From Utricularia gibba (taxonomy: Eukaryota; Streptophyta; Magnoliopsida; Lamiales; Lentibulariaceae), in NCBI GenBank assembly GCA_002189035.1, contig NEEC01000072.1, positions 1 to 64,000 on the forward strand: DNA of 64,000 nt. Direction: 5' to 3'. The translations under genes and the position numbers were made by a program. The first letter of the stretch is position 1, and every line of letters begins with the position of its first letter. Below are positions 1 to 64,000 of this stretch, piece after piece. The notes beneath the pieces are model-generated. The model was not told where the DNA came from. It saw only the letters and a list, made by a program, of their open reading frames with translations, and ran no database searches.

Positions 1-240
1 CGAATCTCGGGCCGGACAAAGCTCCAACGACAGCACCCGCCTTTAAATGGCAAGCTGTTGCTTGAAAAACCATGTGGGCAGCCGCCGACAACCCAACGTT
101 AATAAATGCATCACTTTTTTGGCCAGGCTACAAATGACTATGGGCCAGAGCGCGACTCGACCATTTGCTCGATACTGGTGCCCGCCTAGAGCGCCTCCTC
201 AAATATAAATCAGGTTGTTGAGAAAACCATTTGGGGTGCT
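1..240 (+). repeat. Partial type f monomer at the window edge
   Basis: The window opens inside an A half (cgaatctcgggccggacaaa) and continues into the f-type B half (cactttttt, ggccaggctacaaatgac, gctcgatactgg). The array clearly extends to the left. Confidence 0.9.
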
Positions 241-2106
241 CATGACATCCTAACTTCAGCAAATGCATCACGATTTTCATCGAGTAGCACCCGATTGGGC
301 TCAGGAGCCAGACCGAACCTTGGGCCCTAACAAAGCTGCCAACGACAGCACTCGCCTTAAAACGGCAAGCTATTGCTTGAAAAACCATTTAGGCAGCCGC
401 CGAAAACCATCGTTGATAAATGCATCACTTATTTTCCGGGCTACAACTGACTATTGGCCTGAGCCCGACCCGACTCTGGCCCAATCCCGAAACCCTCCGA
501 GAGCGCCTTCTCAAATATATAGCAGAGTGTTGAGAAAACCCATTGGGGTTCTCATGACATCCTAACTAAAGCAAATGCATTACGATTTCGTCGAGTACGA
601 CCCGATTGGGCTTAGTAGCCAGACCGAATCTCGGGCCCTGACAAAGCTCCCAACTACAGCACCCACCTTAAAACGGCAAGCTGTTGCTTGAAAAACCATT
701 TAGGCAGCCGCCGAAAACCCATCGTTGATAAATGCATCACTTATTTTCCGGGCTACAACTGACTATTGGCCTGAGCCCGACCCGACCTCTGGCCCAATCC
801 CGAAACCCTCCGAGGGCGCCTTCTCAAATATATAGCAGAGTGTTGAAAACCCATTGGGGTTCTCATGACATCCTAACTACATCAAATGCGTTACGATTTT
901 CGTCGAGTGCGACCCGATTGGGCTTAGTAGCCAGACCGAATCTCGGGCCGGACAAAGCTCCCAACGACAGCACCCGCCTTTAAATGGCAAGCTGTTGCTT
1001 GAAAAACCATGTGGGCAGCCGCCGACAACCCAACGTTAATAAATGCATCACTTCTTTTGCCGGGCTACAGCTGACTATGGGCTCAAGCCCGACCCGAATC
1101 CGGCCCGATCTCGGTGACCACAAAAGCGCCTTGTCAAGTGTAAAGCATGCTGTTGAAAAAACCATTTGGGGTGGTCATGAGATCCTAACTTCAATAAAGG
1201 TATCACGATTTTCGTCGAATGGGAACAGATTGTGCTGTGAAGTCAGACCAAACCTTGGGTCCTCACAAAGTTCCCAACAACAGCACCCGCAAAAAACGAC
1301 AACTTTTCCTTCAAAAAGCATGTAGGCAGCCACCGAAAACCCAACGTTAATAAATGCATCACTTCTTTGGCCGGGCTACAAATGACTATGGGCCAGAGCG
1401 CGACTCGACCATTTGCTCGATACTGGACCCGCCTAGAGCGCCTCCTCAAATATAAATCAGGTTGTTGAGAAAACCATTTGGGGTTCTCATGACATCCTAA
1501 CTAAAGCGAATGCATACGATTTCGTCGAGTACGACCCGATTGGGCTTAGTAGCCAGACCGAATCTCGGGCCCTGACAAAGCTCCCAACTACAGCACCCAC
1601 CTTAAAACGGCAAGCTGTTGCTTGAAAAACCATTTAGGCAGCCGCTGAATACCCAACGTTGATAAATGCATCACTTATTTTCCGGGCCACAACTGACTAT
1701 GGGCCTGAGCCCGACCCGACCTCTGGCCCAATCCTGAAACCCCCAAGAGCGCCTTCTCAAATATATAGCAGAGTGTTGAGAAAACCCATTGGGGTTCTCA
1801 TGACATCCTAACTAAATGCATTACGATTTTCGTCGAGTGCGACCCGATTGGGCTTAGTAGCCAGACCGAATCTCGGGCCGGACAAAGCTCCCAACGACAG
1901 CACCCGCCTTTAAATGGCAAGCTGTTGCTTGAAAAACCATGTGGGCAGCCGCCGACAACCCAACGTTAATAAATGCATCACTTTTTGGCCAGGCTACAAA
2001 TGACTATGGGCCAGAGCGCGACTCGACCATTTGCTCGATACTGGTGCCCGCCTAGAGCGCCTCCTCAAATATAAATCAGGTTGTTGAGAAAACCATTTGG
2101 GGTGCT
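241..2106 (+). repeat. HOR block 1: 6-mer a b c d e f (1866 bp)
   Basis: Six monomers in the canonical order. The closing f (1799-2106) starts ctaactaaatgcattacg, a c*-like A half with a short deletion. The same 6-mer recurs at 43576 and 45433. Confidence 0.9.
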
Positions 2107-3351
2107 CATGACATCCTAACTTCAGCAAATGCATCACGATTTTCATCGAGTAGCACCCGATTGGGCTCAGGAGCCAGACCGAACCTTGGGCCCTAACAAA
2201 GCTGCCAACGACAGCACTCGCCTTAAAACGGCAAGCTATTGCTTGAAAAACCATTTAGGCAGCCGCCGAAAACCCATCGTTGATAAATGCATCACTTATT
2301 TTCCGGGCTACAACTGACTATTGGCCTGAGCCCGACCCGACCTCTGGCCCAATCCCGAAACCCTCCGAGAGCGCCTTCTCAAATATATAGCAGAGTGTTG
2401 AGAAAACCCATTGGGGTTCTCATGACATCCTAACTAAAGCAAATGCATTACGATTTCGTCGAGTACGACCCGATTGGGCTTAGTAGCCAGACCGAATCTC
2501 GGGCCCTGACAAAGCTCCAACTACAGCACCCACCTTAAAACGGCAAGCTGTTGCTTGAAAAACCATTTAGGCAGCCGCCGAAAACCCATCGTTGATAAAT
2601 GCATCACTTATTTTCCGGGCTACAACTGACTATTGGCCTGAGCCCGACCCGACCTCTGGCCCAATCCCGAAACCCTCCGAGGCGCCTTCTCAAATATATA
2701 GCAGAGTGTTGAGAAAACCCATTGGGGTTCTCATGACATCCTAACTACATCAAATGCGTTACGATTTTCGTCGAGTGCGACCCGATTGGGCTTAGTAGCC
2801 AGACCGAATCTCGGGCCGGACAAAGCTCCCAACGACAGCACCCGCCTTTAAATGGCAAGCTGTTGCTTGAAAAACCATGTGGGCAGCCGCCGACAACCCA
2901 ACGTTAATAAATGCATCACTTCTTTTGCGGGCTACAGCTGACTATGGGCTCAAGCCCGACCCGAATCCGGCCCGATCTCGGTGACCCACAAAAGCGCCTT
3001 GTCAAGTGTAAAGCATGCTGTTGAAAAAACCATTTGGGGTGGTCATGAGATCCTAACTTCAATAAAGGTATCACGATTTTCGTCGAATGGGGATTGTGCT
3101 GTGAAGTCAGACCAAACCTTGGGTCCTCACAAAGTTCCCAACAACAGCACCCGCAAAAAACGACAACTTTTCCTTCAAAAAGCATGTAGGCAGCCACCGA
3201 AAACCCAACGTTAATAAATGCATCACTTCTTTGGCCGGGCTACAAATGACTATGGGCCAGAGCGCGACTCGACCATTTGCTCGATACTAGTGCCGCCTAG
3301 AGCGCCTCCTCAAATATAAATCAGGTTGTTGAGAAAACCATTTGGGGTGCT
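2107..3351 (+). repeat. HOR block 2: truncated 4-mer a b c d (1245 bp)
   Basis: Begins like block 1, but after d it passes straight to the fusion monomer at 3352. The e and f monomers are missing, consistent with a deletion by unequal exchange. Confidence 0.88.
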
Positions 3352-13593: not shown

Positions 13594-15467
13594 CATGACA
13601 TCCTAACTTCAGCAAATGCATCACGATTTTCATCGAGTAGCACCCGATTGGGCTCAGAGCCAGACCGAACCTTGGGCCCTAACAAAGCTGCCAACGACAG
13701 CACCGCCTTAAAACGGCAAGCTATTGCTTGAAAAACCATTTAGGCAGCCGCCGAAAACCCATCGTTGATAAATGCATCACTTATTTTCCGGGCTACAACT
13801 GACTATGGCCTGAGCCCGACCCGACCTCTGGCCCAATCCCGAAACCCCCAAGAGCGCCTTCTGAAATATAAATAGAGTGTTGAGAAAACCCATTGGGGTT
13901 CTCATGACATCCTAACTACATCAAATGCGTTACGATTTTCGTCGAGTGCGACCCGATTGGGCTTAGTAGCCAGACCGAATCTCGGGCCGGACAAAGCTCC
14001 CAACGACAGCACCCGCCTTTAAATGGCAAGCTGTTGCTTGAAAAACCATGTGGGCAGCCGCCGACAACCCAACGTTAATAAATGCATCACTTCTTTTGCC
14101 GGGCTACAGCTGACTATGGGCTCAAGCCCGACCCGAATCCGGCCCGATCTCGGTGACCCACAAAAGCGCCTTGTCAAGTGTAAAGCATGCTGTTGAAAAA
14201 ACCATTTGGGGTGGTCATGAGATCCTAACTTCAATAAAGGTGTCACGATTTTCGTCGAATGGGATCGGATTGTGCTGTGAAGTCAGACCGAACCTTGGGT
14301 CCGGACGAAGTTCCCAACAACAGCACCCGCAAAAAACGACAACTTTTCCTCGAAAAAAGCATGTAGGCAGCCACCGAAAACCCAACGTTAATAAATGCAT
14401 CACTTTTTTGGCCGGGCTACAAATGACTATGGGCCAGAGCGCGACTCGACCATTTGCTCGATACTAGTGCCAGCCTAGAGCGCCTCCTCAAATATAAATC
14501 AGGTTGTTGAGAAAACCATTTGGGGTGCTCATGACATCCTAACTTCAAAAAATGCATCACGATTTTCATCGAGTAGCACCCGATTGGGCTCAGGAGCCAG
14601 ACCGAACCTTGGGCCCTTACAAAGCTGCCAACGACAGCACCCGCCTTAAAATGGCAAGCTATTGCTTGAAAAACCATTCAGGCAGCCGCCGAAAACCCAA
14701 CGTTGATAAATGCATCACTTATTTTCCGGCTACAACTGACTATGGGCCATAGCCCGACCCGACCTCTGGCCCAATCCCGAAACCCCCCAAGAGCGCCTTC
14801 TGAAATATAAAGTAGTGTTGAGAAAACCCATTGGGGTTCTCATGACATCCTAACTAAAGCAAATGCATTACGATTTCGTCGAGTACGACCCGATTGGGCT
14901 TAGTAGCCAGACCGAATCTCGGGCCCTGACAAAGCTCCCAACTACAGCACCCACCTTAAAACGGCAAGCTGTTGCTTGAAAAACCATTTAGGCAGCCGCC
15001 GAAAACCCAACGTTGATAAATGCATCACTTATTTTCCGGGCCACAACTGACTATGGGCCTGAGCCCGACCCGACCTCTGGCCCAATCCTGAAACCCCCCA
15101 AGAGCGCCTTCTGAAATATAAAGTAGAGTGTTGAGAAAACCCATTGGGGTTCTCATGACATCCTAACTACAGCAAATGCGTTACGATTTTCGTCGAGTGC
15201 GACCCGATTGGGCTTAGTAGCCAGACCGAATCTCGGGCCGGACAAAGCTCCCAACGACAGCACCCGCCTTTAAATGGCAAGCTGTTGCTTGAAAAACCAT
15301 GTGGGCAGCCGCCGACAACCCAACGTTAATAAATGCATCACTTTTTTGGCCAGGCTACAAATGACTATGGGCCAGAGCGCGACTCGACCATTTGCTCGAT
15401 ACTGGTGCCCGCCTAGAGCGCCTCCTCAAATATAAATCAGGTTGTTGAGAAAACCATTTGGGGTGCT
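13594..15467 (+). repeat. HOR block 8: 6-mer a c d* g b* f (1874 bp)
   Basis: Second half of the first 13-mer copy. It lacks monomer b. The a monomer has a b*-like tail (ctgaaatataaatagag). Confidence 0.88.
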
Positions 15468-17642
15468 CATGACATCCTAACTTCAGCAAATGCATCACGA
15501 TTTTCATCGAGTAGCACCCGATTGGCTCAGGAGCCAGACCGAACCTTGGGCCCTAACAAAGCTGCCAACGACAGCACTCGCCTTAAAACGGCAAGCTATT
15601 GCTTGAAAAACCATTTAGGCAGCCGCCGAAAACCCATCGTTGATAAATGCATCACTTATTTTCCGGGCTACAACTGACTATGGGCCTGAGCCCGACCCGA
15701 CCTCTGGCCCAATCCCGAAACCCCCGAGCGCCTTCTCAAATATATAGCAGAGTGTTGAGAAAACCCATTGGGGTTCTCATGACATCCTAACTAAAGCAAA
15801 TGCATTACGATTTCGTCGAGTACGACCCGATTGGGCTTAGTAGCCAGACCGAATCTCGGGCCCTGACAAAGCTCCCAACTACAGCACCCACCTTAAAACG
15901 GCAAGCTGTTGCTTGAAAAACCATTAGGCAGCCGCCGAAAACCCATCGTTGATAAATGCATCACTTATTTTCCGGGCTACAACTGACTATTGGCCTGAGC
16001 CCGACCCGACCTCTGGCCCAATCCCGAAACCCCCCGAGAGCGCCTTCTCAAATATAAGAGTGTTGAGAAAACCCATTGGGGTTCTCATGACATCCTAACT
16101 ACATCAAATGCGTTACGATTTTCGTCGAGTGCGACCCGATTGGGCTTAGTAGCCAGACCGAATCTCGGGCCGGACAAAGCTCCCAACGACAGCACCCGCC
16201 TTTAAATGGCAAGCTGTTGCTTGAAAAACCATGTGGGCAGCCGCCGACAACCCAACGTTAATAAATGCATCACTTCTTTTGCCGGGCTACAGCTGACTAT
16301 GGGCTCAAGCCCGACCCGAATCCGGCCCGATCTCGGTGACCCACAAAAGCGCCTTGTCAAGTGTAAAGCATGCTGTTGAAAAAACCATTTGGGGTGGTCA
16401 TGAGATCCTAACTTCAATAAAGGTATCACGATTTTCGTCGAATGGGAACAGATTGTGCTGTGAAGTCAGACCAACCTTGGGTCCTCACAAAGTTCCCAAC
16501 AACAGCACCCGCCAAAAAACGACAACTTTCCTTCAAAAAGCATGTAGGCAGCCACCGAAAACCCAACGTTAATAAATGCATCACTTCTTTGGCCGGGCTA
16601 CAAATGACTATGGGCCAGAGCGCGACTCGACCATTTGCTCGATACTGGAGCCCGCCTAGAGCGCCTCCTCAAATATAAATCAGGTTGTTGAGAAAACCAT
16701 TTGGGGTTCTCATGACATCCTAACTAAAGCGAATGCATACGATTTCGTCGAGTACGACCCGATTGGGCTTAGTAGCCAGACCGAATCTCGGGCCCTGACA
16801 AAGCTCCCAACTACAGCACCCACCTTAAAACGGCAAGCTGTTGCTTGAAAAACCATTTAGGCAGCCGCGAAACCCAACGTTGATAAATGCATCACTTATT
16901 TTCCGGGCCACAACTGACTATGGGCCTGAGCCCGACCCGACCTCTGGCCCAATCCCGAAACCCCCAAGAGCGCCTTCTGAAATATAAAGTAGAGTGTTGA
17001 GAAAACCATTGGGGTTCTCATGACATCCTAACTACATCAAATGCGTTACGATTTTCGTCGAGTGCGACCCGATTGGGCTTAGTAGCCAGACCGAATCTCG
17101 GGCCGGACAAAGCTCCAACGACAGCACCCGCCTTTAAATGGCAAGCTGTTGCTTGAAAAACCATGTGGGCAGCCGCCGACAACCCAACGTTAATAAATGC
17201 ATCACTTCTTTTGCCGGGCTACAGCTGACTATGGGCTCAAGCCCGACCCGAATCCGGCCCGATCTCGGTGACCCACAAAAGCGCCTTGTCAAGTGTAAAG
17301 CATGCTGTTGAAAAAACCATTTGGGTGGTCATGAGATCCTAACTTCAATAAAGGTATCACGATTTTCGTCGAATGGGAACAGATTGTGCTGTGAAGTCAG
17401 ACCAACCTTGGGTCCTCACAAAGTTCCCAACAACAGCACCCGCCAAAAAACGACAACTTTTCCTTCAAAAAGCATGTAGGCAGCCACCGAAAACCCAACG
17501 TTAATAAATGCATCACTTCTTTGGCCGGGCTACAAATGACTATGGGCCAGAGCGCGACTCGACCATTTGCTCGATACTGGTGCCCGCCTAGAGCGCCTCC
17601 TCAAATATAAATCAGGTTGTTGAGAAAACCATTTGGGGTGCT
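15468..17642 (+). repeat. HOR block 9: 7-mer a b c d e c d (2175 bp)
   Basis: First half of the second 13-mer copy. It corresponds to block 7, except that the sixth monomer starts like c (ctacatcaaatgcg) rather than c*, and the last is plain d. Confidence 0.88.
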
Positions 17643-19515
17643 CATGACATCCTAACTTCAGCAAATGCATCACGATTTTCATCGAGTAGCACCCGATTGG
17701 GCTCAGAGCCAGACCGAACCTTGGGCCCTAACAAAGCTGCCAACGACAGCACTCGCCTTAAAACGGCAAGTATTGCTTGAAAAACCATTTAGGCAGCCGC
17801 CGAAAACCCATCGTTGATAAATGCATCACTTATTTTCCGGGCTACAACTGACTATTGGCCTGAGCCCGACCCGACCTCTGGCCCAATCCCGAAACCCCCC
17901 AAGAGCGCCTTCTGAAATATAAAGCAGAGTGTTGAGAAAACCCATTGGGGTTCTCATGACATCCTAACTACATCAAATGCGTTACGATTTTCGTCGAGTG
18001 CGACCCGATTGGGCTTAGTAGCCAGACCGAATCTCGGGCCGGACAAAGCTCCCAACGACAGCACCCGCCTTTAAATGGCAAGCTGTTGCTTGAAAAACCA
18101 TGTGGGCAGCCGCCGACAACCCAACGTTAATAAATGCATCACTTCTTTTGCCGGGCTACAGCTGACTATGGGCTCAAGCCCGACCCGAATCCGGCCCGAT
18201 CTCGGTGACCCACAAAAGCGCCTTGTCAAGTGTAAAGCATGCTGTTGAAAAAACCATTTGGGGTGGTCATGAGATCCTAACTTCAATAAAGGTGTCACGA
18301 TTTTCGTCGAATGGGATCGATTGTGCTGTGAAGTCAGACCGAACCTTGGGTCCGGACGAAGTTCCCAACAACAGCACCCGCAAAAAAACGACAACTTTTC
18401 CTCGAAAAAGCATGTAGGCAGCCACCGAAAACCCAACGTTAATAAATGCATCACTTTTTTGGCCGGGCTACAAATGACTATGGGCCAGAGCGCGACTCGA
18501 CCATTTGCTCGATACTAGTGCCAGCCTAGAGCGCCTCCTCAAATATAAATCAGGTTGTTGAGAAAACCATTTGGGGTGCTCATGACATCCTAACTTCAAA
18601 AATGCATCACGATTTTCATCGAGTAGCACCCGATTGGGCTCAGGAGCCAGACCGAACCTTGGGCCCTTACAAAGCTGCCAACGACAGCACCGCCTTAAAA
18701 TGGCAAGCTATTGCTTGAAAAACCATTCAGGCAGCCGCCGAAAACCCAACGTTGATAAATGCATCACTTATTTTCCGGGCTACAACTGACTATGGGCCTA
18801 GCCCGACCCGACCTCTGGCCCAATCCCGAAACCCCCAAGAGCGCCTTCTGAAATATAAAGTAGAGTGTTGAGAAAACCCATTGGGGTTCTCATGACATCC
18901 TAACTAAAGCAAATGCATTACGATTTCGTCGAGTACGACCCGATTGGGCTTAGTAGCCAGACCGAATCTCGGGCCCTGACAAAGCTCCCAACTACAGCAC
19001 CCACCTTAAAACGGCAAGCTGTTGCTTGAAAAACCATTTAGGCAGCCGCCGAAAACCCAACGTTGATAAATGCATCACTTATTTTCCGGGCACAACTGAC
19101 TATGGGCCTGAGCCCGACCCGACCTCTGGCCCAATCCTGAAACCCCCAAGAGCGCCTTCTGAAATATAAAGTAGAGTGTTGAGAAAACCCATTGGGGTTC
19201 TCATGACATCCTAACTACAGCAAATGCGTTACGATTTTCGTCGAGTGCGACCCGATTGGGCTTAGTAGCCAGACCGAATCTCGGGCCGGACAAAGCTCCC
19301 AACGACAGCACCCGCCTTTAAATGGCAAGCTGTTGCTTGAAAAACCATGTGGGCAGCCGCCGACAACCCAACGTTAATAAATGCATCACTTTTTTGGCCA
19401 GGCTACAAATGACTATGGGCCAGAGCGCGACTCGACCATTTGCTCGATACTGGTGCCCGCCTAGAGCGCCTCCTCAAATATAAATCAGGTTGTTGAGAAA
19501 ACCATTTGGGGTGCT
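17643..19515 (+). repeat. HOR block 10: 6-mer a c d* g b* f (1873 bp)
   Basis: Second half of the second 13-mer copy, matching block 8 in order and within 1 bp in length. Confidence 0.88.
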
Positions 19516-22322
19516 CATGACATCCTAACTTCAGCAAATGCATCACGATTTTCATCGAGTAGCACCGATTGGCTCAGGAGCCAGACCGAACCTTGGGCCC
19601 TACAAAGCTGCCAACGACAGCACTCGCCTTAAAACGGCAAGCTATTGCTTGAAAAACCATTTAGGCAGCCGCCGAAAACCCATCGTTGATAAATGCATCA
19701 CTTATTTTCCGGGCTACAACTGACTATGGGCCTGAGCCCGACCCGACCTTTGGCCCAATCCCGAAACCCCCGAAGAGCGCCTTCTCAAATATATAGCAGA
19801 GTGTTGAGAAAACCCATTGGGGTTCTCATGACATCCTAACTAAAGCAAATGCATTACGATTTCGTCGAGTACGACCCGATTGGGCTTAGTAGCCAGACCG
19901 AATCTCGGGCCCTGACAAAGCTCCCAACTACAGCACCCACCTTAAAACGGCAAGCTGTTGCTTGAAAAACCATTGGGCAGCCGCCGAAACCCATCGTTGA
20001 TAAATGCATCACTTATTTTCCGGGCTACAACTGACTATTGGCCTGAGCCCGACCCGACCTCTGGCCCAATCCCGAAACCCCCCAAGAGCGCCTTCTGAAA
20101 TATTAGAGTGTTGAGAAAACCCATTGGGGTTCTCATGACATCCTAACTACATCAAATGCGTTACGATTTTCGTCGAGTGCGACCCGATTGGGCTTAGTAG
20201 CCAGACCGAATCTCGGGCCGGACAAAGCTCCCAACGACAGCACCCGCCTTTAAATGGCAAGCTGTTGCTTGAAAAACCATGTGGGCAGCCGCCGACAACC
20301 CAACGTTAATAAATGCATCACTTCTTTTGCCGGGCTACAGCTGACTATGGGCTCAAGCCCGACCCGAATCCGGCCCGATCTCGGTGACCCACAAAAGCGC
20401 CTTGTCAAGTGTAAAGCATGCTGTTGAAAAAACCATTTGGGGTGGTCATGAGATCCTAACTTCAATAAAGGTATCACGATTTTCGTCGAATGGGAACAGA
20501 TTGTGCTGTGAAGTCAGACCAAACCTTGGGTCCTCACAAAGTTCCCAACAACAGCACCCGCCAAAAAACGACAACTTTTCCTTCAAAAAGCATGTAGGCA
20601 GCCACCGAAAACCCAACGTTAATAAATGCATCACTTCTTTGGCCGGGCTACAAATGACTATGGGCCAGAGCGCGACTCGACCATTTGCTCGATACTGGAG
20701 CCCGCCTAGAGCGCCTCCTCAAATATAAATCAGGTTGTTGAGAAAACCATTTGGGGTTCTCATGACATCCTAACTAAAGCGAATGCATACGATTTCGTCG
20801 AGTACGACCCGATTGGGCTTAGTAGCCAGACCGAATCTCGGGCCCTGACAAAGCTCCCAACTACAGCACCCACCTTAAAACGGCAAGCTGTTGCTTGAAA
20901 AACCATTTAGGCAGCCGCCGAAAACCCAACGTTGATAAATGCATCACTTATTTTCCGGGCCACAACTGACTATGGGCCTGAGCCCGACCCGACCTCTGGC
21001 CCAATCCCGAAACCCCCGAGGCGCCTTCTCAAATATATAGCAGAGTGTTGAGAAAACCCATTGGGGTTCTCATGACATCCTAACTACATCAAATGCGTTA
21101 CGATTTTCGTCGAGTGCGACCCGATTGGGCTTAGTAGCCAGACCGAATCTCGGGCCGGACAAAGCTCCCAACGACAGCACCCGCCTTTAAATGGCAAGCT
21201 GTTGCTTGAAAAACCATGTGGGCAGCCGCCGACAACCCAACGTTAATAAATGCATCACTTCTTTTGCCGGGCTACAGCTGACTATGGGCTCAAGCCCGAC
21301 CCGAATCCGGCCCGATCTCGGTGACCCACAAAAGCGCCTTGTCAAGTGTAAAGCATGCTGTTGAAAAAACCATTTGGGGTGGTCATGAGATCCTAACTTC
21401 AATAAAGGTATCACGATTTTCGTCGAATGGGAACAGATTGTGCTGTGAAGTCAGACCAAACCTTGGGTCCTCACAAAGTTCCCAACAACAGCACCCGCCA
21501 AAAAACGACAACTTTTCCTTCAAAAAGCATGTAGGCAGCCACCGAAAACCCAACGTTAATAAATGCATCACTTCTTTGGCCGGGCTACAAATGACTATGG
21601 GCCAGAGCGCGACTCGACCATTTGCTCGATACTGGAGCCCGCCTAGAGCGCCTCCTCAAATATAAATCAGGTTGTTGAGAAAACCATTTGGGGTTCTCAT
21701 GACATCCTAACTAAAGCGAATGCATACGATTTCGTCGAGTACGACCCGATTGGGCTTAGTAGCCAGACCGAATCTCGGGCCCTGACAAAGCTCCCAACTA
21801 CAGCACCCACCTTAAAACGGCAAGCTGTTGCTTGAAAAACCATTTAGGCAGCCGCTGAAACCCAACGTTGATAAATGCATCACTTATTTTCCGGGCCACA
21901 ACTGACTATGGGCCTGAGCCCGACCCGACCTCTGGCCCAATCCTGAAACCCCCCAAGAGCGCTTTCTGAAATATAAAGTAGAGTGTTGAGAAAACCCATT
22001 GGGGTTCTCATGACATCCTAACTACAGCAAATGCGTTACGATTTTTCGTCGAGTGCGACCCGATTGGGCTTAGTAGCCAGACCGAATCTCGGGCCGGACA
22101 AAGCTCCCAACGACAGCACCCGCCTTTAAATGGCAAGCTGTTGCTTGAAAAACCATGTGGGCAGCCGCCGACAACCCAACGTTAATAAATGCATCACTTT
22201 TTTGGCCAGGCTACAAATGACTATGGGCCAGAGCGCGACTCGACCATTTGCTCGATACTGGTGCCCGCCTAGAGCGCCTCCTCAAATATAAATCAGGTTG
22301 TTGAGAAACCATTTGGGGTGCT
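19516..22322 (+). repeat. HOR block 11: 9-mer a b c d e c d e f (2807 bp)
   Basis: First 9-mer of the homogenised core. It carries agcgctttctg at 21963 in slot 8, shared by the 9-mers at 23884, 28265 and 36076. It lacks gcagcaaccg in slot 4, which those three have. Its final f has gttacgatttttcg, one T longer than usual. Confidence 0.9.
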
Positions 22323-23883
22323 CATGACATCCTAACTTCAGCAAATGCATCACGATTTTCATCGAGTAGCACCCGATTGGGCTCAGGAGCCAGACCGAAC
22401 CTTGGGCCCTAACAAAGCTGCCAACGACAGCACTCGCCTTAAAACGGCAAGCTATTGCTTGAAAAACCATTTAGGCAGCCGCCGAAAACCCATCGTTGAT
22501 AAATGCATCACTTATTTTCCGGGCTACAACTGACTATGGGCCTGAGCCCGACCCGACCTCTGGCCCAATCCCGAAACCCTCCGAGAGCGCCTTCTCAAAT
22601 ATATAGCAGAGTGTTGAGAAAACCCATTGGGGTTCTCATGACATCCTAACTACATCAAATGCGTTACGATTTTCGTCGAGTGCGACCCGATTGGGCTTAG
22701 TAGCCAGACCGAATCTCGGGCCGGACAAAGCTCCCAACGACAGCACCCGCCTTTAAATGGCAAGCTGTTGCTTGAAAAACCATGTGGGCAGCCGCCGACA
22801 ACCCAACGTTAATAAATGCATCACTTCTTTTGCCGGGCTACAGCTGACTATGGGCTCAAGCCCGACCCGAATCCGGCCCGATCTCGGTGACCCACAAAAG
22901 CGCCTTGTCAAGTGTAAAGCATGCTGTTGAAAAAACCATTTGGGGTGGTCATGAGATCCTAACTTCAATAAAGGTATCACGATTTTCGTCGAATGGGAAC
23001 AGATTGTGCTGTGAAGTCAGACCAAACCTTGGGTCCTCACAAAGTTCCCAACAACAGCACCGCCAAAAAACGACAACTTTTCCTTCAAAAAGCATGTAGG
23101 CAGCCACCGAAAACCCAACGTTAATAAATGCATCACTTCTTTGGCCGGGCTACAAATGACTATGGGCCAGAGCGCGACTCGACCATTTGCTCGATACTGG
23201 AGCCGCCTAGAGCGCCTCCTCAAATATAAATCAGGTTGTTGAGAAAACCATTTGGGGTTCTCATGACATCCTAACTAAAGCGAATGCATACGATTTCGTC
23301 GAGTACGACCCGATTGGGCTTAGTAGCCAGACCGAATCTCGGGCCCTGACAAAGCTCCCAACTACAGCACCCACCTTAAAACGGCAAGCTGTTGCTTGAA
23401 AAACCATTTAGGCAGCCGCTGAATACCCAACGTTGATAAATGCATCACTTATTTCCGGGCCACAACTGACTATGGGCCTGAGCCCGACCCGACCTCTGGC
23501 CCAATCCTGAAACCCCCAAGAGCGCCTTCTGAAATATAAAGTAGAGTGTTGAGAAAACCCATTGGGGTTCTCATGACATCCTAACTACAGCAAATGCGTT
23601 ACGATTTTCGTCGAGTGCGACCCGATTGGGCTTAGTAGCCAGACCGAATCTCGGGCCGGACAAAGCTCCCAACGACAGCACCCGCCTTTAAATGGCAAGC
23701 TGTTGCTTGAAAAACCATGTGGGCAGCCGCCGACAACCCAACGTTAATAAATGCATCACTTTTTTGGCCAGGCTACAAATGACTATGGGCCAGAGCGCGA
23801 CTCGACCATTTGCTCGATACTGGTGCCCGCTAGAGCGCCTCCTCAAATACAAATCAGGTTGTTGAGAAACCATTTGGGGTGCT
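22323..23883 (+). repeat. HOR block 12: 5-mer a c d e f (1561 bp)
   Basis: A 5-mer lacking b. It ends with caaatacaaatcagg, found also before 28265 and 40459 at the end of the matching 5-mers, so the slot is inherited. Confidence 0.9.
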
Positions 23884-24197
23884 CATGACATCCTAACTTC
23901 AGCAAATGCATCACGATTTTCATCGAGTAGCACCCGATTGGGCTCAGGAGCCAGACCGAACCTTGGGCCCTAACAAAGCTGCCAACGACAGCACTCGCCT
24001 TAAAACGGCAAGCTATTGCTTGAAAAACCATTTAGGCAGCCGCCGAAAACCCATCGTTGATAAATGCATCACTTATTTTCCGGGCTACAACTGACTATTG
24101 GCCTGAGCCCGACCCGACCTCTGGCCCAATCCCGAAACCCTCCGAGAGCGCCTTCTCAAATATATAGCAGAGTGTTGAGAAAACCCATTGGGGTTCT
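23884..24197 (+). repeat. Monomer type a (exemplar), showing the two ~156-bp halves
   Basis: Type a is A half 23884-24041 plus B half 24042-24197. The halves align along their length: aaaccatttgggg against aaaaccatttaggc, aaatgcatcacgatttt against aaatgcatcacttatttt, gggctcaggagccagaccga against ggcctgagcccgacccga, and cgcctt..agctattgcttga against cgccttctc..agtgttga. The monomer is therefore an old dimer of a 156-bp ancestor. Diagnostic bases of type a are cttcagcaaatgcatcacg, catcgagtagcaccc and ccctaacaaagctgcc in A, with cccatcgttgat and gactattggcctg (some copies gactatgggcctg) in B. It normally follows a type d or f monomer and opens each block in this annotation. Confidence 0.93.
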
Positions 24198-24510
24198 CAT
24201 GACATCCTAACTAAAGCAAATGCATTACGATTTCGTCGAGTACGACCCGATTGGGCTTAGTAGCCAGACCGAATCTCGGGCCCTGACAAAGCTCCCAACT
24301 ACAGCACCCACCTTAAAACGGCAAGCTGTTGCTTGAAAAACCATTTAGGCAGCCGCCGAAAACCCATCGTTGATAAATGCATCACTTATTTTCCGGGCTA
24401 CAACTGACTATTGGCCTGAGCCCGACCCGACCTCTGGCCCAATCCCGAAACCCTCCGAGGGCGCCTTCTCAAATATATAGCAGAGTGTTGAGAAAACCCA
24501 TTGGGGTTCT
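24198..24510 (+). repeat. Monomer type b (exemplar)
   Basis: The A half reads ctaaagcaaatgcattacg, then tcgagtacgacccg, gaatctcgggccctgac and ctacagcacccacc. The B half is nearly the same as that of type a (cccatcgttgat, ccctccgagggcgcc). It normally follows a and precedes c. It is absent from the 5-mers and from some 6- and 8-mers, where a is followed directly by c. Confidence 0.9.
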
Positions 24511-24823
24511 CATGACATCCTAACTACATCAAATGCGTTACGATTTTCGTCGAGTGCGACCCGATTGGGCTTAGTAGCCAGACCGAATCTCGGGCCGGAC
24601 AAAGCTCCCAACGACAGCACCCGCCTTTAAATGGCAAGCTGTTGCTTGAAAAACCATGTGGGCAGCCGCCGACAACCCAACGTTAATAAATGCATCACTT
24701 CTTTTGCCGGGCTACAGCTGACTATGGGCTCAAGCCCGACCCGAATCCGGCCCGATCTCGGTGACCCACAAAAGCGCCTTGTCAAGTGTAAAGCATGCTG
24801 TTGAAAAAACCATTTGGGGTGGT
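24511..24823 (+). repeat. Monomer type c (exemplar)
   Basis: The A half reads ctacatcaaatgcgttacg, gtcgagtgcgacccg, cgggccggacaaagc and cctttaaatggcaagc. The B half is distinctive: ccgacaacccaacgttaat, cacttcttttgccggg, acagctgactatgggctc, aatccggcccgatctcggtg and gtgtaaagcatgctgttga. In the A half the ATGCAT palindrome has become ATGCGT. A relative called c* here begins ctacaacaaatgc and often has a shorter 'ccttaaatgg'. Confidence 0.9.
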
Positions 24824-25137
24824 CATGAGATCCTAACTTCAATAAAGGTATCACGATTTTCGTCGAATGGGAACAGATTGTGCTGTGAAGTCAGACCAAA
24901 CCTTGGGTCCTCACAAAGTTCCCAACAACAGCACCCGCCAAAAAACGACAACTTTTCCTTCAAAAAGCATGTAGGCAGCAACCGAAAACCCAACGTTAAT
25001 AAATGCATCACTTCTTTGGCCGGGCTACAAATGACTATGGGCCAGAGCGCGACTCGACCATTTGCTCGATACTGGAGCCCGCCTAGAGCGCCTCCTCAAA
25101 TATAAATCAGGTTGTTGAGAAAACCATTTGGGGTTCT
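24824..25137 (+). repeat. Monomer type d (exemplar), most diverged A half
   Basis: The A half opens catgagatcctaacttcaat instead of catgacatcc. It has aaaggtatcacg where other types have aaatgcat, then gaatgggaacagattgtgc, gtgaagtcagaccaaacc, gggtcctcacaaag and a purine-rich ccgccaaaaaacgacaac. The B half has gcagccaccgaaaaccc (gcagcaaccg in this copy), cttctttggccggg, gccagagcgcgactcgacc and gctcgatactgg. It is the most divergent type and the usual partner of c, which it follows. Confidence 0.9.
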
Positions 25138-25448
25138 CATGACATCCTAACTAAAGCGAATGCATACGATTTCGTCGAGTACGACCCGATTGGGCTTAGT
25201 AGCCAGACCGAATCTCGGGCCCTGACAAAGCTCCCAACTACAGCACCCACCTTAAAACGGCAAGCTGTTGCTTGAAAAACCATTTAGGCAGCCGCCGAAA
25301 ACCCAACGTTGATAAATGCATCACTTATTTTCCGGGCCACAACTGACTATGGGCCTGAGCCCGACCCGACCTCTGGCCCAATCCCGAAACCCCCGAGGGC
25401 GCCTTCTCAAATATATAGCAGAGTGTTGAGAAAACCCATTGGGGTTCT
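25138..25448 (+). repeat. Monomer type e (exemplar)
   Basis: The A half is close to b but reads ctaaagcgaatgcatacg (two bases shorter at the core). The B half has ccgccgaaaacccaacgttg or, in most other copies, ccgctgaa(ta)cccaacg. It continues with gggccacaactgactatggg and, in many copies, aatcctgaaacccccc and ctgaaatataaagtagag. It follows d and precedes c or f. Confidence 0.88.
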
Positions 25449-26386
25449 CATGACATCCTAACTACATCAAATGCGTTACGATTTTCGTCGAGTGCGACCC
25501 GATTGGGCTTAGTAGCCAGACCGAATCTCGGGCCGGACAAAGCTCCCAACGACAGCACCCGCCTTTAAATGGCAAGCTGTTGCTTGAAAAACCATGTGGG
25601 CAGCCGCCGACAACCCAACGTTAATAAATGCATCACTTCTTTTGCCGGGCTACAGCTGACTATGGGCTCAAGCCCGACCCGAATCCGGCCCGATCTCGGT
25701 GACCCACAAAAGCGCCTTGTCAAGTGTAAAGCATGCTGTTGAAAAAACCATTTGGGGTGGTCATGAGATCCTAACTTCAATAAAGGTATCACGATTTTCG
25801 TCGAATGGGAACAGATTGTGCTGTGAAGTCAGACCAAACCTTGGGTCCTCACAAAGTTCCCAACAACAGCACCCGCCAAAAAACGACAACTTTTCCTTCA
25901 AAAAGCATGTAGGCAGCCACCGAAAACCCAACGTTAATAAATGCATCACTTCTTTGGCCGGGCTACAAATGACTATGGGCTAGAGCGCGACTCGACCATT
26001 TGCTCGATACTGGAGCCCGCCTAGAGCGCCTCCTCAAATATAAATCAGGTTGTTGAGAAAACCATTTGGGGTTCTCATGACATCCTAACTAAAGCGAATG
26101 CATACGATTTCGTCGAGTACGACCCGATTGGGCTTAGTAGCCAGACCGAATCTCGGGCCCTGACAAAGCTCCCAACTACAGCACCCACCTTAAAACGGCA
26201 AGCTGTTGCTTGAAAAACCATTTAGGCAGCCGCTGAATACCCAACGTTGATAAATGCATCACTTATTTTCCGGGCCACAACTGACTATGGGCCTGAGCCC
26301 GACCCGACCTCTGGCCCAATCCTGAAACCCCCAAGAGCGCTTTCTGAAATATAAAGTAGAGTGTTGAGAAAACCCATTGGGGTTCT

Positions 26387-26699
26387 CATGACATCCTAAC
26401 TACAGCAAATGCGTTACGTTTTTCGTCGAGTGCGACCCGATTGGGCTTAGTAGCCAGACCGAATCTCGGGCCGGACAAAGCTCCCAACGACAGCACCCGC
26501 CTTTAAATGGCAAGCTGTTGCTTGAAAAACCATGTGGGCAGCCGCCGACAACCCAACGTTAATAAATGCATCACTTTTTTGGCCAGGCTACAAATGACTA
26601 TGGGCCAGAGCGCGACTCGACCATTTGCTCGATACTGGTGCCCGCCTAGAGCGCCTCCTCAAATATAAATCAGGTTGTTGAGAAACCATTTGGGGTGCT
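26387..26699 (+). repeat. Monomer type f (exemplar), c/d fusion
   Basis: From 26387 to roughly 26570 this monomer matches type c (gtcgagtgcgacccg, cgggccggac, cctttaaatggc, ccgacaacccaacg). After cactttttt it changes to the type-d B half (ggccaggctacaaatgac, gccagagcgcg, gctcgatactgg) and is followed by type a, as d often is. It is therefore a c-then-d fusion and occupies the slot that c* d fills in 7-mer blocks. This copy also carries gttacgtttttcg, a variant shared with two other copies. Confidence 0.88.
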
Positions 26700-56507: not shown

Positions 56508-58313
56508 CATGACATCCTAACTTCAGCAAATGCATCACGATTTTCATCGAGTAGCACCCGATTGGGCTCAGGAGCCAGACCGAACTTGGGCCCTAACAAA
56601 GCTGCCAACGACAGCACTCGCGTTAAAACGGCAAGCTATTGCTTGAAAAACCATTTAGGCAGCCGCCGAAAACCCATCGTTGATAAATGCATCACTTATT
56701 TTCCGGGCTACAACTGACTATTGGCCTGAGCCCGACCCGACCTCTGGCCCAATCCCGAAACCCCCAAGAGCGCCTTCTGAAATATAAAGTAGAGTGTTGA
56801 GAAAACCCATTGGGGTTCTCATGACATCCTAACTACATCAAATGCGTTACGATTTTCGTCGAGTGCGACCCGATTGGGCTTAGTAGCCAGACCGAATCTC
56901 GGGCCGGACAAAGCTCCCAACGACAGCACCCGCCTTTAAATGGCAAGCTGTTGCTTGAAAAACCATGTGGGCAGCCGCCGACAACCCAACGTTAATAAAT
57001 GCATCACTTCTTTTGCCGGGCTACAGCTGACTATGGGCTCAAGCCCGACCCGAATCCGGCCCGATCTCGGTGACCCACAAAAGCGCCTTGTCAAGTGTAA
57101 AGCATGCTGTTGAAAAAACCATTTGGGGTGGTCATGAGATCCTAACCTCAATAAAGGTGTCACGATTTTCGTCGAATGGGATCGGATTGTGCTGTGAAGT
57201 CAGACCGAACCTTGGGTCCGGACGAAGTTCCCAACAACAGCACCCGCAAAAAACGACAACTTTTCCTCGAAAAAACCATGTGGGCAGCCGCCGACAACCC
57301 AACGTTAATAAATGCATCACTTTTTTGGCCGGGCTAAATGACTATGGGCAAGAGCGCGACTCGACCATTTGCTCGATACTGGTGCCGCCTAGAGCGCCTC
57401 CTCAAATATAAATCAGGTTGTTGAGAAAACCATTTGGGGTTCTCATGACATCCTACTAAAGCAAATGCATTACGATTTCGTCGAGTACGACCCGATTGGG
57501 CTTAGTAGCCAGACCGAATCTCGGGCCTGACAAAGCTCCCAACTACAGCACCCACCTTAAAACGGCAAGCTATTGCTTGAAAAACCATTTCGGCAGCCGC
57601 CGAAAACGCATCGTTGATAAATGCATCACTTATTTTCCGGGCTACAACTGACTATGGGCCTGAGCCCGACCCGACCTCTGGCCCAATCCCGAAACCCTCC
57701 GAGAGCGCCTTCTCAAATATATAGCAGAGTGTTGAGAAAACCAATTGGGGTTCTCATGACATCCTAACTACAACAAATGCATTACGATTTCGTCGAGTGC
57801 GACCCGATTGGGTTTAGTAGCCAGACCGAATCTCGGGCCCGGACAAAGCTCCCAGCGACAGCACCCGCCATTAAATGGCAAGCTGTTGCTTGAAAACCAT
57901 GTGGGCAGCCGCGACAACCCAACGTTAATAAATGCATCACTTCTTTTGCCGGGCTACAGCTGACTTTGGGCTCAAGACTGACCCGAATCCGGCCCGATCT
58001 CGGTGACCCACAAAAGCGCCCTCTCAAGTGTAAAGCATGCTGTTGAAAAAACCATTTGGGGTGGTCATGAGATCCTAACTTCAATAAAGGCATCACGATT
58101 TACGTCGAATGGGACCCGATTGTGCTGTGAAGTCAAACCGAATCTTGGGTTCGGACGAAGTTACCAACAACAGCACCCGCCAATAAACGACAACATTTCC
58201 TTCAAAAAGCATGTAGGCAGCCACCGAAAACCCAACGTTAATAAATGCATCACTTCTTTGGCCGGGCTACAAATGACTATGGGCCAGAGCGCGACTCGAC
58301 CATTTGGGGTTCA
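56508..58313 (+). repeat. HOR block 28: 6-mer a c d* b c* h (1806 bp)
   Basis: Entry into region 4. Slot 3 (57133-57443) has a d* A half but a c/f-like start to its B half (ccatgtgggcagccgccgac). The last monomer h (58066-58313) is only 248 bp because of an internal deletion. Confidence 0.86.
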
Positions 58314-59564
58314 CATGACATCCTAACTTCAGCAAATGCATCACGATTTTCATCGAGTAGCACCCGAATGGGCTCTGGAGCCAGACTGAACCTTGGGCCC
58401 TAACAAAGCTGCCAACTACAGCACTCGCCTTAAAACGGCAAGCTGTTGCTTGAAAAACCATTTAGGCAGCCGCCGAAAACCCATCGTTGATAAATGCATC
58501 ACTTATTTTCCGGGCTACAACTGACTATTGGCCTGAGCCCGACCCGACCTCTGGCCCAATCCCGAAACCCCCAAGAGCGCCTTCTGAAATATAAAGTAGA
58601 GTGTTGAGAAAACCCATTGGGGTTCTCATGACATCCTAACTACATCAAATGCGTTACGATTTTCGTCGAGTGCGACCCGATTGGGCTTAGTAGCCAGACC
58701 GAATCTCGGGCCGGACAAAGCTCCCAACGACAGCACCCGCCTTTAAATGGCAAGCTGTTGCTTGAAAAACCATGTGGGCAGCCGCCGACAACCCAACGTT
58801 AATAAATGCATCACTTCTTTTGCCGGGCTACAGCTGACTATGGGCTCAAGCCCGACCCGAATCCGGCCCGATCTCGGTGACCCACAAAAGCGCCTTGTCA
58901 AGTGTAAAGCATGCTGTTGAAAAAACCATTTGGGGTGGTCATGAGATCCTAACCTCAATAAAGGTGTCACGATTTTCGTCGAATGGGATCGGATTGTGCT
59001 GTGAAGTCAGACCGAACCTTGGGTCCGGACGAAGTTCCCAACAACAGCACCCGCAAAAAAACGACAACTTTTCCTCGAAAAAAGCATGTAGGCAGCCACC
59101 GAAAACCCAACGTTAATAAATGCATCACTTTTTTGGCCGGGCTACAAATGACTATGGGCCAGAGCGCGACTCGACCATTTGCTCGATACTAGTGCCAGCC
59201 TAGAGCGCCTCCTCAAATATAAATCAGGTTGTTGAGAAACCATTTGGGGTGCTCATGACATCCTAACTTCAAAAATGCATCACGATTTTCATCGAGTAGC
59301 ACCCGATTGGGCTCAGGAGCCAGACCGAACCTTGGGCCCTTACAAAGCTGCCAACGACAGCACCCGCCTTAAAATGGCAAGCTATTGCTTGAAAAACCAT
59401 TCAGGCAGCCGCCGAAAACCCAACGTTGATAAATGCATCACTTATTTTCCGGGCTACAACTGACTATGGGCCATAGCCCGACCCGACCTCTGGCCCAATC
59501 CCGAAACCCCCAAGAGCGCCTTCTGAAATATAAAGTAGAGTGTTGAGAAAACCCATTGGGGTCT

Positions 59565-59876
59565 CATGACATCCTAACTAAAGCAAATGCATTACGATTT
59601 CGTCGAGTACGACCCGATTGGGCTTAGTAGCCAGACCGAATCTCGGGCCCTGACAAAGCTCCCAACTACAGCACCCACCTTAAAACGGCAAGCTGTTGCT
59701 TGAAAAACCATTTAGGCAGCCGCCGAAAACCCAACGTTGATAAATGCATCACTTATTTTCCGGGCTACAACTGACTATGGGCTCAAGCCCGACCCGAATC
59801 CGGCCCGATCTCGGTGACCCACAAAAGCGCCTTGTCAAGTGTAAAGCATGCTGTTGAAAAAACCATTTGGGGTGGT
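59565..59876 (+). repeat. Monomer type k (exemplar): b/c fusion
   Basis: The sequence is type b or b* through ccgggctacaactgactatggg, then type c from about 59780 (ctcaagcccgacccgaatcc, ctcggtgacccac). It is followed by d*, as c would be. The copy at 62316-62627 has the same breakpoint. The fusion at 55886-56194 breaks earlier, near gcagccgccgac, so it arose separately or was reshuffled. Confidence 0.85.
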
Positions 59877-60815
59877 CATGAGATCCTAACCTCAATAAAG
59901 GTGTCACGATTTTCGTCGAATGGGATCGGATTGTGCTGTGAAGTCAGACCGAACCTTGGGTCCGGACGAAGTTCCCAACAACAGCACCCGCAAAAAAACG
60001 ACAACTTTTCCTCGAAAAAACCATGTGGGCAGCCGCCGAAACCCAACGTTAATAAATGCATCACTTTTTTGGCCGGGCTAGAAATGACTATGGGCAAGAG
60101 CGCGACTCGACCATTTGCTCGATACTGGTGCCCGCCTAGAGCGCCTCCTCAAATATAAATCAGGTTGTTGAGAAAACCATTTGGGGTTCTCATGACATCC
60201 TACCTAAAGCAAATGCATTACGATTTCGTCGAGTACGACCCGATTGGGCTTAGTAGCCAGACCGAATCTCGGGCTCTGACAAAGCTCCCAACTACAGCAC
60301 CCCTTAAAACGGCAAGCTATTGCTTGAAAAACCATTTCGGCAGCCGCCGAAAACGCATCGTTGATAAATGCATCACTTATTTTCCGGGCTACAACTGACT
60401 ATGGGCCTGAGCCCGACCCGACCTCTGGCCCAATCCCGAAACCCTCCGAGAGCGCCTTCTCAAATATATAGCAGAGTGTTGAGAAAACCAATTGGGGTTC
60501 TCATGACATCCTAACTACAACAAATGCATTACGATTTACGTCGAGTGCGACCCGATTGGGTTTAGTAGCCAGACCGAATCTCGGGCCCGGACAAAGCTCC
60601 CAGCGACAGCACCCGCCATTAAATGGCAAGCTGTTGCTTGAAACACCATGTGGGCAGCCGCCGACAACCCAACGTTAATAAATGCATCACTTCTTTTGCC
60701 GGGCTACAGCTGACTTTGGGCTCAAGACTGACCCGAATCCGGCCCGATCTCGGTGACCCACAAAAGCGCCCTCTCAAGTGTAAAGCATGCTGTTGAAAAA
60801 ACCATTTGGGGTGGT

Positions 60816-61063
60816 CATGAGATCCTAACTTCAATAAAGGCATCACGATTTACGTCGAATGGGACCCGATTGTGCTGTGAAGTCAAACCGAATCTTGGGT
60901 TCGGACGAAGTTACCAACAACAGCACCCGCCAATAAACGACAACATTTCCTTCAAAAAGCATGTAGGCAGCCACCGAAAACCCAACGTTAATAAATGCAT
61001 CACTTCTTTGGCCGGGCTACAAATGACTATGGGCCAGAGCGCGACTCGACCATTTGGGGTTCA
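60816..61063 (+). repeat. Monomer type h (exemplar): d-like with a 66-bp deletion
   Basis: The A half is a distinct d relative (aaaggcatcacgatttacg, gggacccgattgtgc, gtcaaaccgaatcttggg, gaagttaccaacaac). In the B half, gactcgaccattt joins directly to ggggttcacatgac. The 66 missing bases (gctcgatactgg through the second accattt) lie between two accattt copies in the intact monomer. The same junction occurs at about 58301, 61051 and 63798. Confidence 0.9.
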
Positions 61064-63810
61064 CATGACATCCTAACTTCAGCAAATGCATCACGATTTT
61101 CATCGAGTAGCACCCGAATGGGCTCTGGAGCCAGACTGAACCTTGGGCCCTAACAAAGCTGCCAACTACAGCACTCGCCTTAAAACGGCAAGCTGTTGCT
61201 TGAAAAACCATTTAGGCAGCCGCCGAAAACCCATCGTTGATAAATGCATCACTTATTTTCCGGGCTACAACTGACTATTGGCCTGAGCCCGACCCGACCT
61301 CTGGCCCAATCCCGAAACCCCCCAAGAGCGCCTTCTGAAATATAAAGTAGAGTGTTGAGAAAACCCATTGGGGTTCTCATGACATCCTAACTACATCAAA
61401 TGCGTTACGATTTTCGTCGAGTGCGACCCGATTGGGCTTAGTAGCCAGACCGAATCTCGGGCCGGACAAAGCTCCCAACGACAGCACCCGCCTTTAAATG
61501 GCAAGCTGTTGCTTGAAAAACCATGTGGGCAGCCGCCGACAACCCAACGTTAATAAATGCATCACTTCTTTTGCCGGGCTACAGCTGACTATGGGCTCAA
61601 GCCCGACCCGAATCCGGCCCGATCTCGGTGACCCACAAAAGCGCCTTGTCAAGTGTAAAGCATGCTGTTGAAAAAACCATTTGGGGTGGTCATGAGATCC
61701 TAACTCAATAAAGGTGTCACGATTTTCGTCGAATGGGATCGGATTGTGCTGTGAAGTCAGACCGAACCTTGGGTCCGGACGAAGTTCCCAACAACAGCAC
61801 CCGCAAAAAAACGACAACTTTTCCTCGAAAAAGCATGTAGGCAGCCACCGAAAACCCAACGTTAATAATGCATCACTTTTTTGGCCGGGCTACAAATGAC
61901 TATGGGCCAGAGCGCGACTCGACCATTTGCTCGATACTAGTGCCAGCCTAGAGCGCCTCCTCAAATATAAATCAGGTTGTTGAGAAAACCATTTGGGGTG
62001 CTCATGACATCCTAACTTCAAAAAATGCATCACGATTTTCATCGAGTAGCACCCGATTGGGCTCAGGAGCCAGACCGAACCTTGGGCCCTTACAAAGCTG
62101 CCAACGACAGCACCCGCCTTAAAATGGCAAGCTATTGCTTGAAAAACCATTCAGGCAGCCGCCGAAAACCCAACGTTAATAAATGCATCACTTATTTTCC
62201 GGGCTACAACTGACTATGGGCCATAGCCCGACCCGACCTCTGGCCCAATCCCGAAACCCCCAAGAGCGCCTTCTGAAATATAAAGTAGAGTGTTGAGAAA
62301 ACCCATTGGGGATCTCATGACATCCTAACTAAAGCAAATGCATTACGATTTCGTCGAGTACGACCCGATTGGGCTTAGTAGCCAGACCGAATCTCGGGCC
62401 CTGACAAAGCTCCCAACTACAGCACCCACCTTAAAACGGCAAGCTGTTGCTTGAAAAACCATTTAGGCAGCCGCCGAAAACCCAACGTTGATAAATGCAT
62501 CACTTATTTTCCGGGCTACAACTGACTATGGGCTCAAGCCCGACCCGAATCCGGCCCGATCTCGGTGACCCACAAAAGCGCCTTGTCAAGTGTAAAGCAT
62601 GCTGTTGAAAAAACCATTTGGGGTGGTCATGAGATCCTAACTCAATAAAGGTGTCACGATTTTCGTCGAATGGGATCGGATTGTGCTGTGAAGTCAGACC
62701 GAACCTTGGGTCCGGACGAAGTTCCCAACAACAGCACCCGCAAAAAACGACAACTTTTCCTCGAAAAAACCATGTAGGCAGCCACCGAAAACCCAACGTT
62801 AATAAATGCATCACTTTTTTGGCCGGGCTACAAATGACTATGGGCCAGAGCGCGACCGACCATTTGCTCGATACTGGTGCCCGCCTAGAGCGCCTCCTCA
62901 AATATAAATCAGGTTGTTAAGAAAACCATTTGGGGTGCTCATGACATCCTACTAAAGCAAATGCATTACGATTTCGTCGAGTACGACCCGATTGGGCTTA
63001 GTAGCCAGACCGAATCTCGGGCCCTGACAAAGCTCCCAACTACAGCACCCACCTTAAAACGGCAAGCTATTGCTTGAAAAACCATTTAGGCAGCCGCCGA
63101 AAACCATCGTTGATAAATGCATCACTTATTTTCCGGGCTACAACTGACTATGGGCCTGAGCCCGACCCGACCTCTGGCCCAATCCCGAAACCCTCCGAGA
63201 GCGCCTTCTCAAATATATAGCAGAGTGTTGAGAAAACCAATTGGGGTTCTCATGACATCCTAACTACAACAAATGCATTACGATTTACGTCGAGTGCGAC
63301 CCGATTGGGTTTAGTAGCCAGACCGAATCTCGGGCCCGGACAAAGCTCCCAGCGACAGCACCCGCCTTAAATGGCAAGCTGTTGCTTGAAAAACCATGTG
63401 GGCAGCCGCCGACAACCCAACGTTAATAAATGCATCACTTCTTTTGCCGGGCTACAGCTGACTTTGGGCTCAAGACCGACCCGAATCCGGCCCGATCTCG
63501 GTGACCCACAAAAGCGCCCTCTCAAGTGTAAAGCATGCTGTTGAAAAAACCATTTGGGGTGGTCATGAGATCCTAACTTCAATAAAGGCATCACGATTTA
63601 CGTCGAATGGGACCGATTGTGCTGTGAAGTCAAACCGAATCTTGGGTTCGGACGAAGTTACCAACAACAGCACCCGCCAAAAAACGACAACTTTTCCTTC
63701 AAAAAGCATGTAGGCAGCCACCGAAAACCCAACGTTAATAAATGCATCACTTCTTTGGCCGGGCTACAAATGACTATGGGCCAGAGCGCGACTCGACCAT
63801 TTGGGGTTCA
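61064..63810 (+). repeat. HOR block 30: 9-mer a* c d* g k d* b c* h, copy 2 (2747 bp)
   Basis: Same nine slots as block 29 with few differences (for example ggatctcatgac before k at 62316). It ends with h at 63564-63810. Confidence 0.9.
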
Positions 63811-64000
63811 CATGACATCCTAACTTCAGCAAATGCATCACGATTTTCATCGAGTAGCACCCGAATGGGCTCTGGAGCCAGACTGAACCTTGGGCCTAAC
63901 AAAGCTGCCAACTACAGCACCGCCTTAAAACGGCAAGCTATTGCTTGAAAAACCATTTAGGCAGCCGCCGAAAACCATCGTTGATAAATGCATCACTTAT
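63811..64000 (+). repeat. Partial a* monomer at the window edge
   Basis: Start of a third region-4 HOR copy (cccgaatgggctctggag, as in the other a* monomers). The array continues beyond the window. Confidence 0.88.

What the first reader, a model, noticed from the sequence alone, without database searches (positions are those of the whole stretch)
1..64000. Unrecognised satellite family with nested higher-order repeats; candidate centromeric or heterochromatic array
Seen: 64 kb with nothing but a ~312-bp monomer, single orientation, and HOR tiers of 5, 6, 7, 8, 9, 13 and 14 monomers. Known: homogenised HOR arrays typify human alpha satellite and some plant and insect satellites, and are often kinetochore-associated. 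Inference: this could be a centromere core or a large heterochromatic block. I do not recognise the sequence as a described family.
Basis: partly seen in the sequence, partly recalled or inferred. Interest (0 to 1): 0.75.

Follow-up and report, generated by a model that had tools for sequence, protein, structure and literature searches.

The report
Satellite array related to ribosomal spacer
The whole window is part of a long tandem-repeat block in a small plant genome (probably the bladderwort Utricularia gibba); the block runs straight into ribosomal RNA genes, its repeat unit shares ancestry with the spacer between those genes, and it is absent from four large chromosome-scale contigs, so it is probably heterochromatin beside a nucleolus organiser and not a general centromere repeat.

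Summary
All 64 kb is one single-orientation tandem array of 207 monomers (~313 bp, mean pairwise identity 84%) with nested higher-order repeats. The array continues to 77,440 of its 94,555-bp contig and then joins, without a gap, the intergenic spacer (IGS) of a 45S rDNA array. A profile of the 132-bp IGS subrepeat finds the satellite and nothing else: 163 of 163 hits, all on the satellite strand, none in 154 kb of other DNA. Two IGS subrepeats align collinearly with one monomer (score 76; shuffles 30±7, maximum 61 of 1000). The superfamily makes up about 5 Mb (~5%) of the 100-Mb assembly, in contig-specific subfamilies, but gives no hit in four large chromosome contigs (23.9 Mb), two of them telomere to telomere. 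Assembly statistics fit Utricularia gibba, whose complete chromosomes reportedly lack centromeric satellites. Best reading: an IGS-related satellite forming heterochromatin next to an NOR and elsewhere. A centromere role on unfinished chromosomes is not excluded. New member of a known kind.

The parts
1..64000 (+). tandem array of ~313-bp monomers, 207 monomers, four main types (A-D); continues to contig position 77,440
1..313 (+). one ~313-bp monomer frame (starting CGAATCTCGGGCC); an old dimer of ~157-bp halves, homologous to two 132-bp rDNA IGS subrepeats
   Evidence: halves 62% identical; IGS alignment
13666..17714 (+). 13-monomer HOR copy, repeated from 17,715 (10 monomers at 98.9%)
20207..28962 (+). 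two consecutive 14-monomer HOR copies (20,207-24,583 and 24,584-28,962; ~4.38 kb, 99.6% identical), with a partial third copy from 28,963; the most homogenised part of the array is about 20-40 kb
57206..63797 (+). 9-monomer HOR (~2.75 kb, 99.2%) carrying truncated 248-bp monomers

Best explanation
This is an rDNA-related satellite. Its ~157-bp half-unit and the 132-bp subrepeat of the 45S rDNA intergenic spacer descend from one repeat. The half-unit dimerised to ~313 bp, diverged into monomer types, and was amplified by repeated local unequal crossing-over or segmental duplication into trimers and longer HORs. It now forms contig-specific arrays, about 5 Mb in this ~100-Mb plant assembly: here directly flanking an rDNA array, elsewhere flanking retrotransposon-containing stretches. 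It most likely acts as transcriptionally inert heterochromatin at the edge of a nucleolus organiser, not as the species' general kinetochore DNA. Shown: array structure, junction with IGS, homology to IGS, absence from C1-C4. Inferred: direction of descent (IGS to satellite), heterochromatic state, role, and species (Utricularia gibba).
For: Array. Junction within a monomer at C443:77,440 into IGS with 52-, 132- and ~1,017-bp subrepeats, then a second IGS 12.33 kb further on. Homology: satellite HMM hits IGS at E=7.6e-6, none in 40 shuffled IGS or in 10 loci outside the superfamily, most of them other tandem repeats; two IGS units align with one whole monomer, score 76 against null 30.4±6.8, max 61 of 1000, reverse strand 29; IGS-132 HMM gives 163 hits, all in satellite-bearing loci, none in 153.6 kb of other DNA or in reversed sequence. 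Absent from C1-C4. Array-specific subfamilies. Neighbouring stretches of C510 include Pfam-confirmed retrotransposon ORFs.
Against: Only one contig shows the satellite-rDNA junction, so a chimeric contig is possible. Identity to IGS is ancient (70% over aligned bases) and no graded intermediates were seen at the junction. Chromatin state was not measured. Most satellite-bearing contigs are short and unplaced, so a centromeric site on unfinished chromosomes cannot be ruled out.
Confidence: 0.7

Rival explanations
1. The array is a functional centromere (CENH3-binding core) on a subset of chromosomes, for example acrocentric NOR chromosomes, while other chromosomes have satellite-free centromeres.
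For: Homogenised HORs, a nucleosome-scale ~157-bp half-unit, contig-specific subfamilies, TE-containing neighbours and a telomere-rDNA contig C69 would fit a telomere-NOR-satellite-centromere order.
Against: Absent from four large chromosome contigs; abuts rDNA; no CENP-B box, which is not required in plants; no CENH3 data.
Confidence: 0.15
2. Subtelomeric or knob-type satellite.
For: The NOR end on contig C69 is telomere-proximal, so rDNA-adjacent arrays could lie near chromosome ends.
Against: None of the telomere-bearing contig ends sampled (C1, C2, both ends of C3 and C4, C244, C317, C375 right end) has the satellite within about 3-6 kb.
Confidence: 0.08
3. The satellite came first and a copy was captured into the IGS, giving the 132-bp subrepeats.
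For: The two halves and the IGS unit are about equally distant from each other (62%, 54%, 55% over all columns), so sequence alone does not resolve the direction.
Against: Published plant cases are interpreted as IGS to satellite (PMC2679016).
Confidence: 0.2
4. Assembly artefact: chimeric junction or collapsed/expanded HOR blocks in an older long-read contig.
For: Single junction contig; near-identical HOR blocks are hard to assemble.
Against: The satellite itself occurs on many contigs, so the family is real; the homology to IGS does not depend on the junction.
Confidence: 0.1

Closest known systems
Tomato IGS-homologous satellite (Jo et al. 2009, PMC2679016)
   Same: Satellite homologous to rDNA IGS subrepeats, arrays free of rRNA genes, expansion by segmental duplication; FISH foci in pericentromeric heterochromatin.
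   Different: Tomato unit stays 52-53 bp and is 86% identical to the IGS subrepeat; here the unit has dimerised to ~313 bp, identity to IGS is ~70% over aligned bases, and it carries HORs.
Potato 2D8 rDNA-related repeat (cited in PMC2679016)
   Same: rDNA-IGS-related tandem repeat in pericentromeric heterochromatin.
   Different: ~3-kb monomers of AT- and GC-rich clusters; not sequence-compared here.
Cannabis CS-237 (PMC9183113)
   Same: Tandem repeat of a few hundred bp with a shortened version inside the 45S IGS; one of its sites co-localises with the NOR.
   Different: Unrelated species; not sequence-compared here; no HOR mentioned in the abstract read.
Human alpha satellite HOR arrays (general knowledge)
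   Same: Nested HORs, homogenised array interior.
   Different: Alpha satellite is kinetochore DNA on all chromosomes; this family is missing from at least four large chromosome contigs.

Membership tests
rDNA IGS-related plant satellite | sequence homology to IGS subrepeats of the same genome | tested here: met
rDNA IGS-related plant satellite | long tandem arrays free of rRNA genes | tested here: met
   77 kb array without rDNA; many other contigs
rDNA IGS-related plant satellite | transitional sequences between rDNA and satellite | tested here: inconclusive
   the junction at C443:77,440 is abrupt; the most IGS-like stretch is at an array edge on C510 with 157-bp periodicity
rDNA IGS-related plant satellite | pericentromeric or NOR location by FISH | not testable with these tools
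   no cytology; one rDNA junction seen
centromeric (CENH3) satellite | present on most or all chromosomes | tested here: not met
   zero hits in C1-C4, 23.9 Mb
centromeric (CENH3) satellite | CENH3 enrichment | not testable with these tools
   no ChIP data
centromeric (CENH3) satellite | HOR organisation of a nucleosome-scale unit | tested here: met
centromeric (CENH3) satellite | interspersed CRM-type retrotransposons | not tested
   the window is satellite end to end; CRM elements were not searched genome-wide
subtelomeric satellite | lies next to telomere repeats | tested here: not met
   telomere-bearing ends sampled carry none within 3-6 kb

The most novel reading that the evidence does not exclude
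The genome has two centromere classes: satellite-free centromeres on the completely assembled chromosomes, and centromeres built from an rDNA-spacer-derived HOR satellite on the NOR-bearing and other unfinished chromosomes, so that a ribosomal spacer repeat was recruited as centromere DNA.
Probability: 0.12. Interest if true: 0.75.

Novelty: new member of a known kind. Interest (0 to 1): 0.42.

Why it matters
If the species is Utricularia gibba, a model for minimal plant genomes whose putative centromeres are reported to lack satellite repeats (PMC8333044), then about 5% of the assembly is still one HOR satellite superfamily related to its rDNA spacer. That makes satellite birth from rDNA, NOR flank structure, and mixed satellite-rich and satellite-free chromosomes testable in a very small genome.

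Tried and rejected
A DNA search of the own genome with 640 bp of the array was not scored (too many candidates). Sandalwood was considered because its commonest tandem unit is 312 bp (PMC11633456) but set aside: the chromosome pattern fits U. gibba, and by general knowledge sandalwood's plastome is much smaller than contig C516 (172,489 bp). Searches for a named 312/313-bp plant satellite gave nothing matching. Plastome and mitochondrial size searches did not identify the species. A CENP-B box was searched and not found. The IGS similarity was tested against shuffles, reversed sequence and other tandem repeats before it was accepted. The 2017 U. gibba genome paper is not held.

Full report
Observation. 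The window is contig C443, bases 1-64,000, of a 100.09-Mb, 516-contig plant assembly (plastome contig with rbcL). TRF and nhmmer tile it completely with one repeat. 207 monomers were cut out, modal length 312-313 bp, all on the + strand, mean pairwise identity 0.84. No 15-mer is shared with the reverse strand. Clustering gives four main monomer types. Their order is a mosaic of B-C-D trimers with an optional A monomer; lag 3 has the highest mean identity (0.887), and the commonest exact-repeat spacing is 937 bp. Homogenisation is strongest at about 20-40 kb (nearest-copy identity 0.998) and lower toward both sides.

Monomer anatomy. The consensus is an old dimer: its halves (155 and 160 bp) align at 62% over all columns, score 54 against a shuffled mean of -13. 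The autocorrelation has peaks at 156-157 bp.

Surroundings. The array runs on to C443:77,440, stops inside a monomer and joins 45S rDNA intergenic spacer with 52-, 132- and ~1,017-bp subrepeats. A second copy of the same spacer lies 12.33 kb further on; the stretch between is withheld as N in 2,500-base blocks, consistent with conserved rRNA genes. The sequence was recognised as rDNA spacer from this arrangement and its composition; the rRNA genes themselves could not be read. The junction sequence occurs once in the assembly. Contig C69 begins with a telomere joined to rearranged IGS, so at least one NOR end is telomere-proximal; whether it is the same NOR is unknown.

Relation to the spacer. 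A profile of the window's monomers hits the IGS 132-bp subrepeats on the same strand (best E 7.6e-6), with no hit in 40 shuffled spacers or in ten loci outside the superfamily, most of them other tandem repeats. Two 132-bp units align collinearly with a whole 313-bp monomer: score 76, against 30.4±6.8 and a maximum of 61 in 1000 dinucleotide shuffles; reverse strand 29. In the other direction, a profile built only from 25 IGS subrepeat matches gives 163 hits in all fetched DNA outside rDNA. All 163 are in satellite-bearing loci (151 kb) on the satellite strand; none is in 153.6 kb of other DNA and none in the reversed sequences. Identity over aligned bases is about 70%. The three units (two halves and IGS) are roughly equidistant, so the direction of descent is inferred from published precedents, not shown.

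Distribution. A superfamily pattern (YAAMKGYRTYAYKWTTTTMRYCGA) has 10,071 hits and none on its backward control; a hit occurs about every 490-520 bp in sampled arrays, so the superfamily is roughly 5 Mb. The window-type 15-mer has 4,142 hits, about 1.3 Mb. Hits are listed in contig order and begin at C7 (superfamily) and C34 (window type), so C1-C4 (8.50, 6.19, 5.35 and 3.85 Mb) have none; C3 and C4 carry telomere repeats at both ends. The pattern finds about 81% of the superfamily monomers it was designed on, so a few very diverged copies in C1-C4 could be missed, but not arrays. Subfamilies are contig-specific: C460 start is 76%, C510 start 68% and C150 69% identical on average to C443, whereas single monomers of C47 and C109 reach 100%. 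C460 (881 kb) has satellite at both ends in opposite orientation and 10 satellite-free samples between. Sampled non-satellite stretches of C510 hold Pfam-confirmed retrotransposon integrase and gag ORFs; other retroelement-like ORFs there and in C460 were not confirmed by Pfam.

Species. Assembly size (~100 Mb), largest contig of 8.5 Mb, a 6.8-Mb contig, and complete small chromosomes match the PacBio assembly of Utricularia gibba (PMC8333044 mentions Unitig_8 of 6.8 Mb, four putatively entire chromosomes and a ~100-Mb genome; PMC5793159). This is an inference; no species-specific sequence test was possible. That paper, citing an earlier genome paper (not held), states that satellite repeats are absent from the putative centromeric regions.

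Mechanism. Best supported: a spacer-related repeat dimerised, diverged and was amplified by unequal exchange and segmental duplication into HOR arrays that form heterochromatin beside an NOR and in other retrotransposon-containing regions. Structure, junction and homology are shown; chromatin state, function and direction of descent are inferred. A centromere role on unfinished chromosomes remains possible and needs CENH3 data.

Comparison. IGS-homologous satellites are known in tomato, potato, tobacco and legumes (PMC2679016) and in Cannabis (PMC9183113). This family is a new member of that kind, distinguished by its dimeric ~313-bp unit, deep divergence from the IGS, HOR tiers and a direct junction with rDNA.

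Noticed in passing
G000:C69:1-3600 (L098): Telomere repeats lead into 45S IGS sequence, first inverted and later in the other orientation: a telomere-capped NOR end.
   Followed up: partly
G000:C150 and C183-C219 contigs (L006-L009): Highly regular ~2,333-bp spacing of a diverged subfamily (about 69% to the window), spread over many short contigs.
   Followed up: partly
C451 right end (L068), C480 left end (L071), C375 left end (L065), C100 and C400 (L025, L032): Other tandem repeats: 335-347 bp, 1,369 bp, and an unmeasured repeat shared by C100 and C400. The 335/347-bp and 1,369-bp loci and the C100 locus give no hit to the window monomer profile.
   Followed up: partly
C510:~31.4-32.1 kb (L090, L102): Array edge with ~157-bp periodicity that is the most IGS-like stretch found (E 2.2e-6), possibly close to the ancestral monomer.
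   Followed up: partly
C515:56,844-60,236 (L013): Fragment of plastid rbcL, with stop codons, in the probable mitochondrial contig, near a cox2-like ORF.
   Followed up: no
C451:4,004,276-4,007,302 (L001): A 280-bp fragment of 18S rRNA (Rfam SSU_rRNA_eukarya, 235 bits) embedded in sequence that looks Ty1/copia-like, away from any rDNA array.
   Followed up: no
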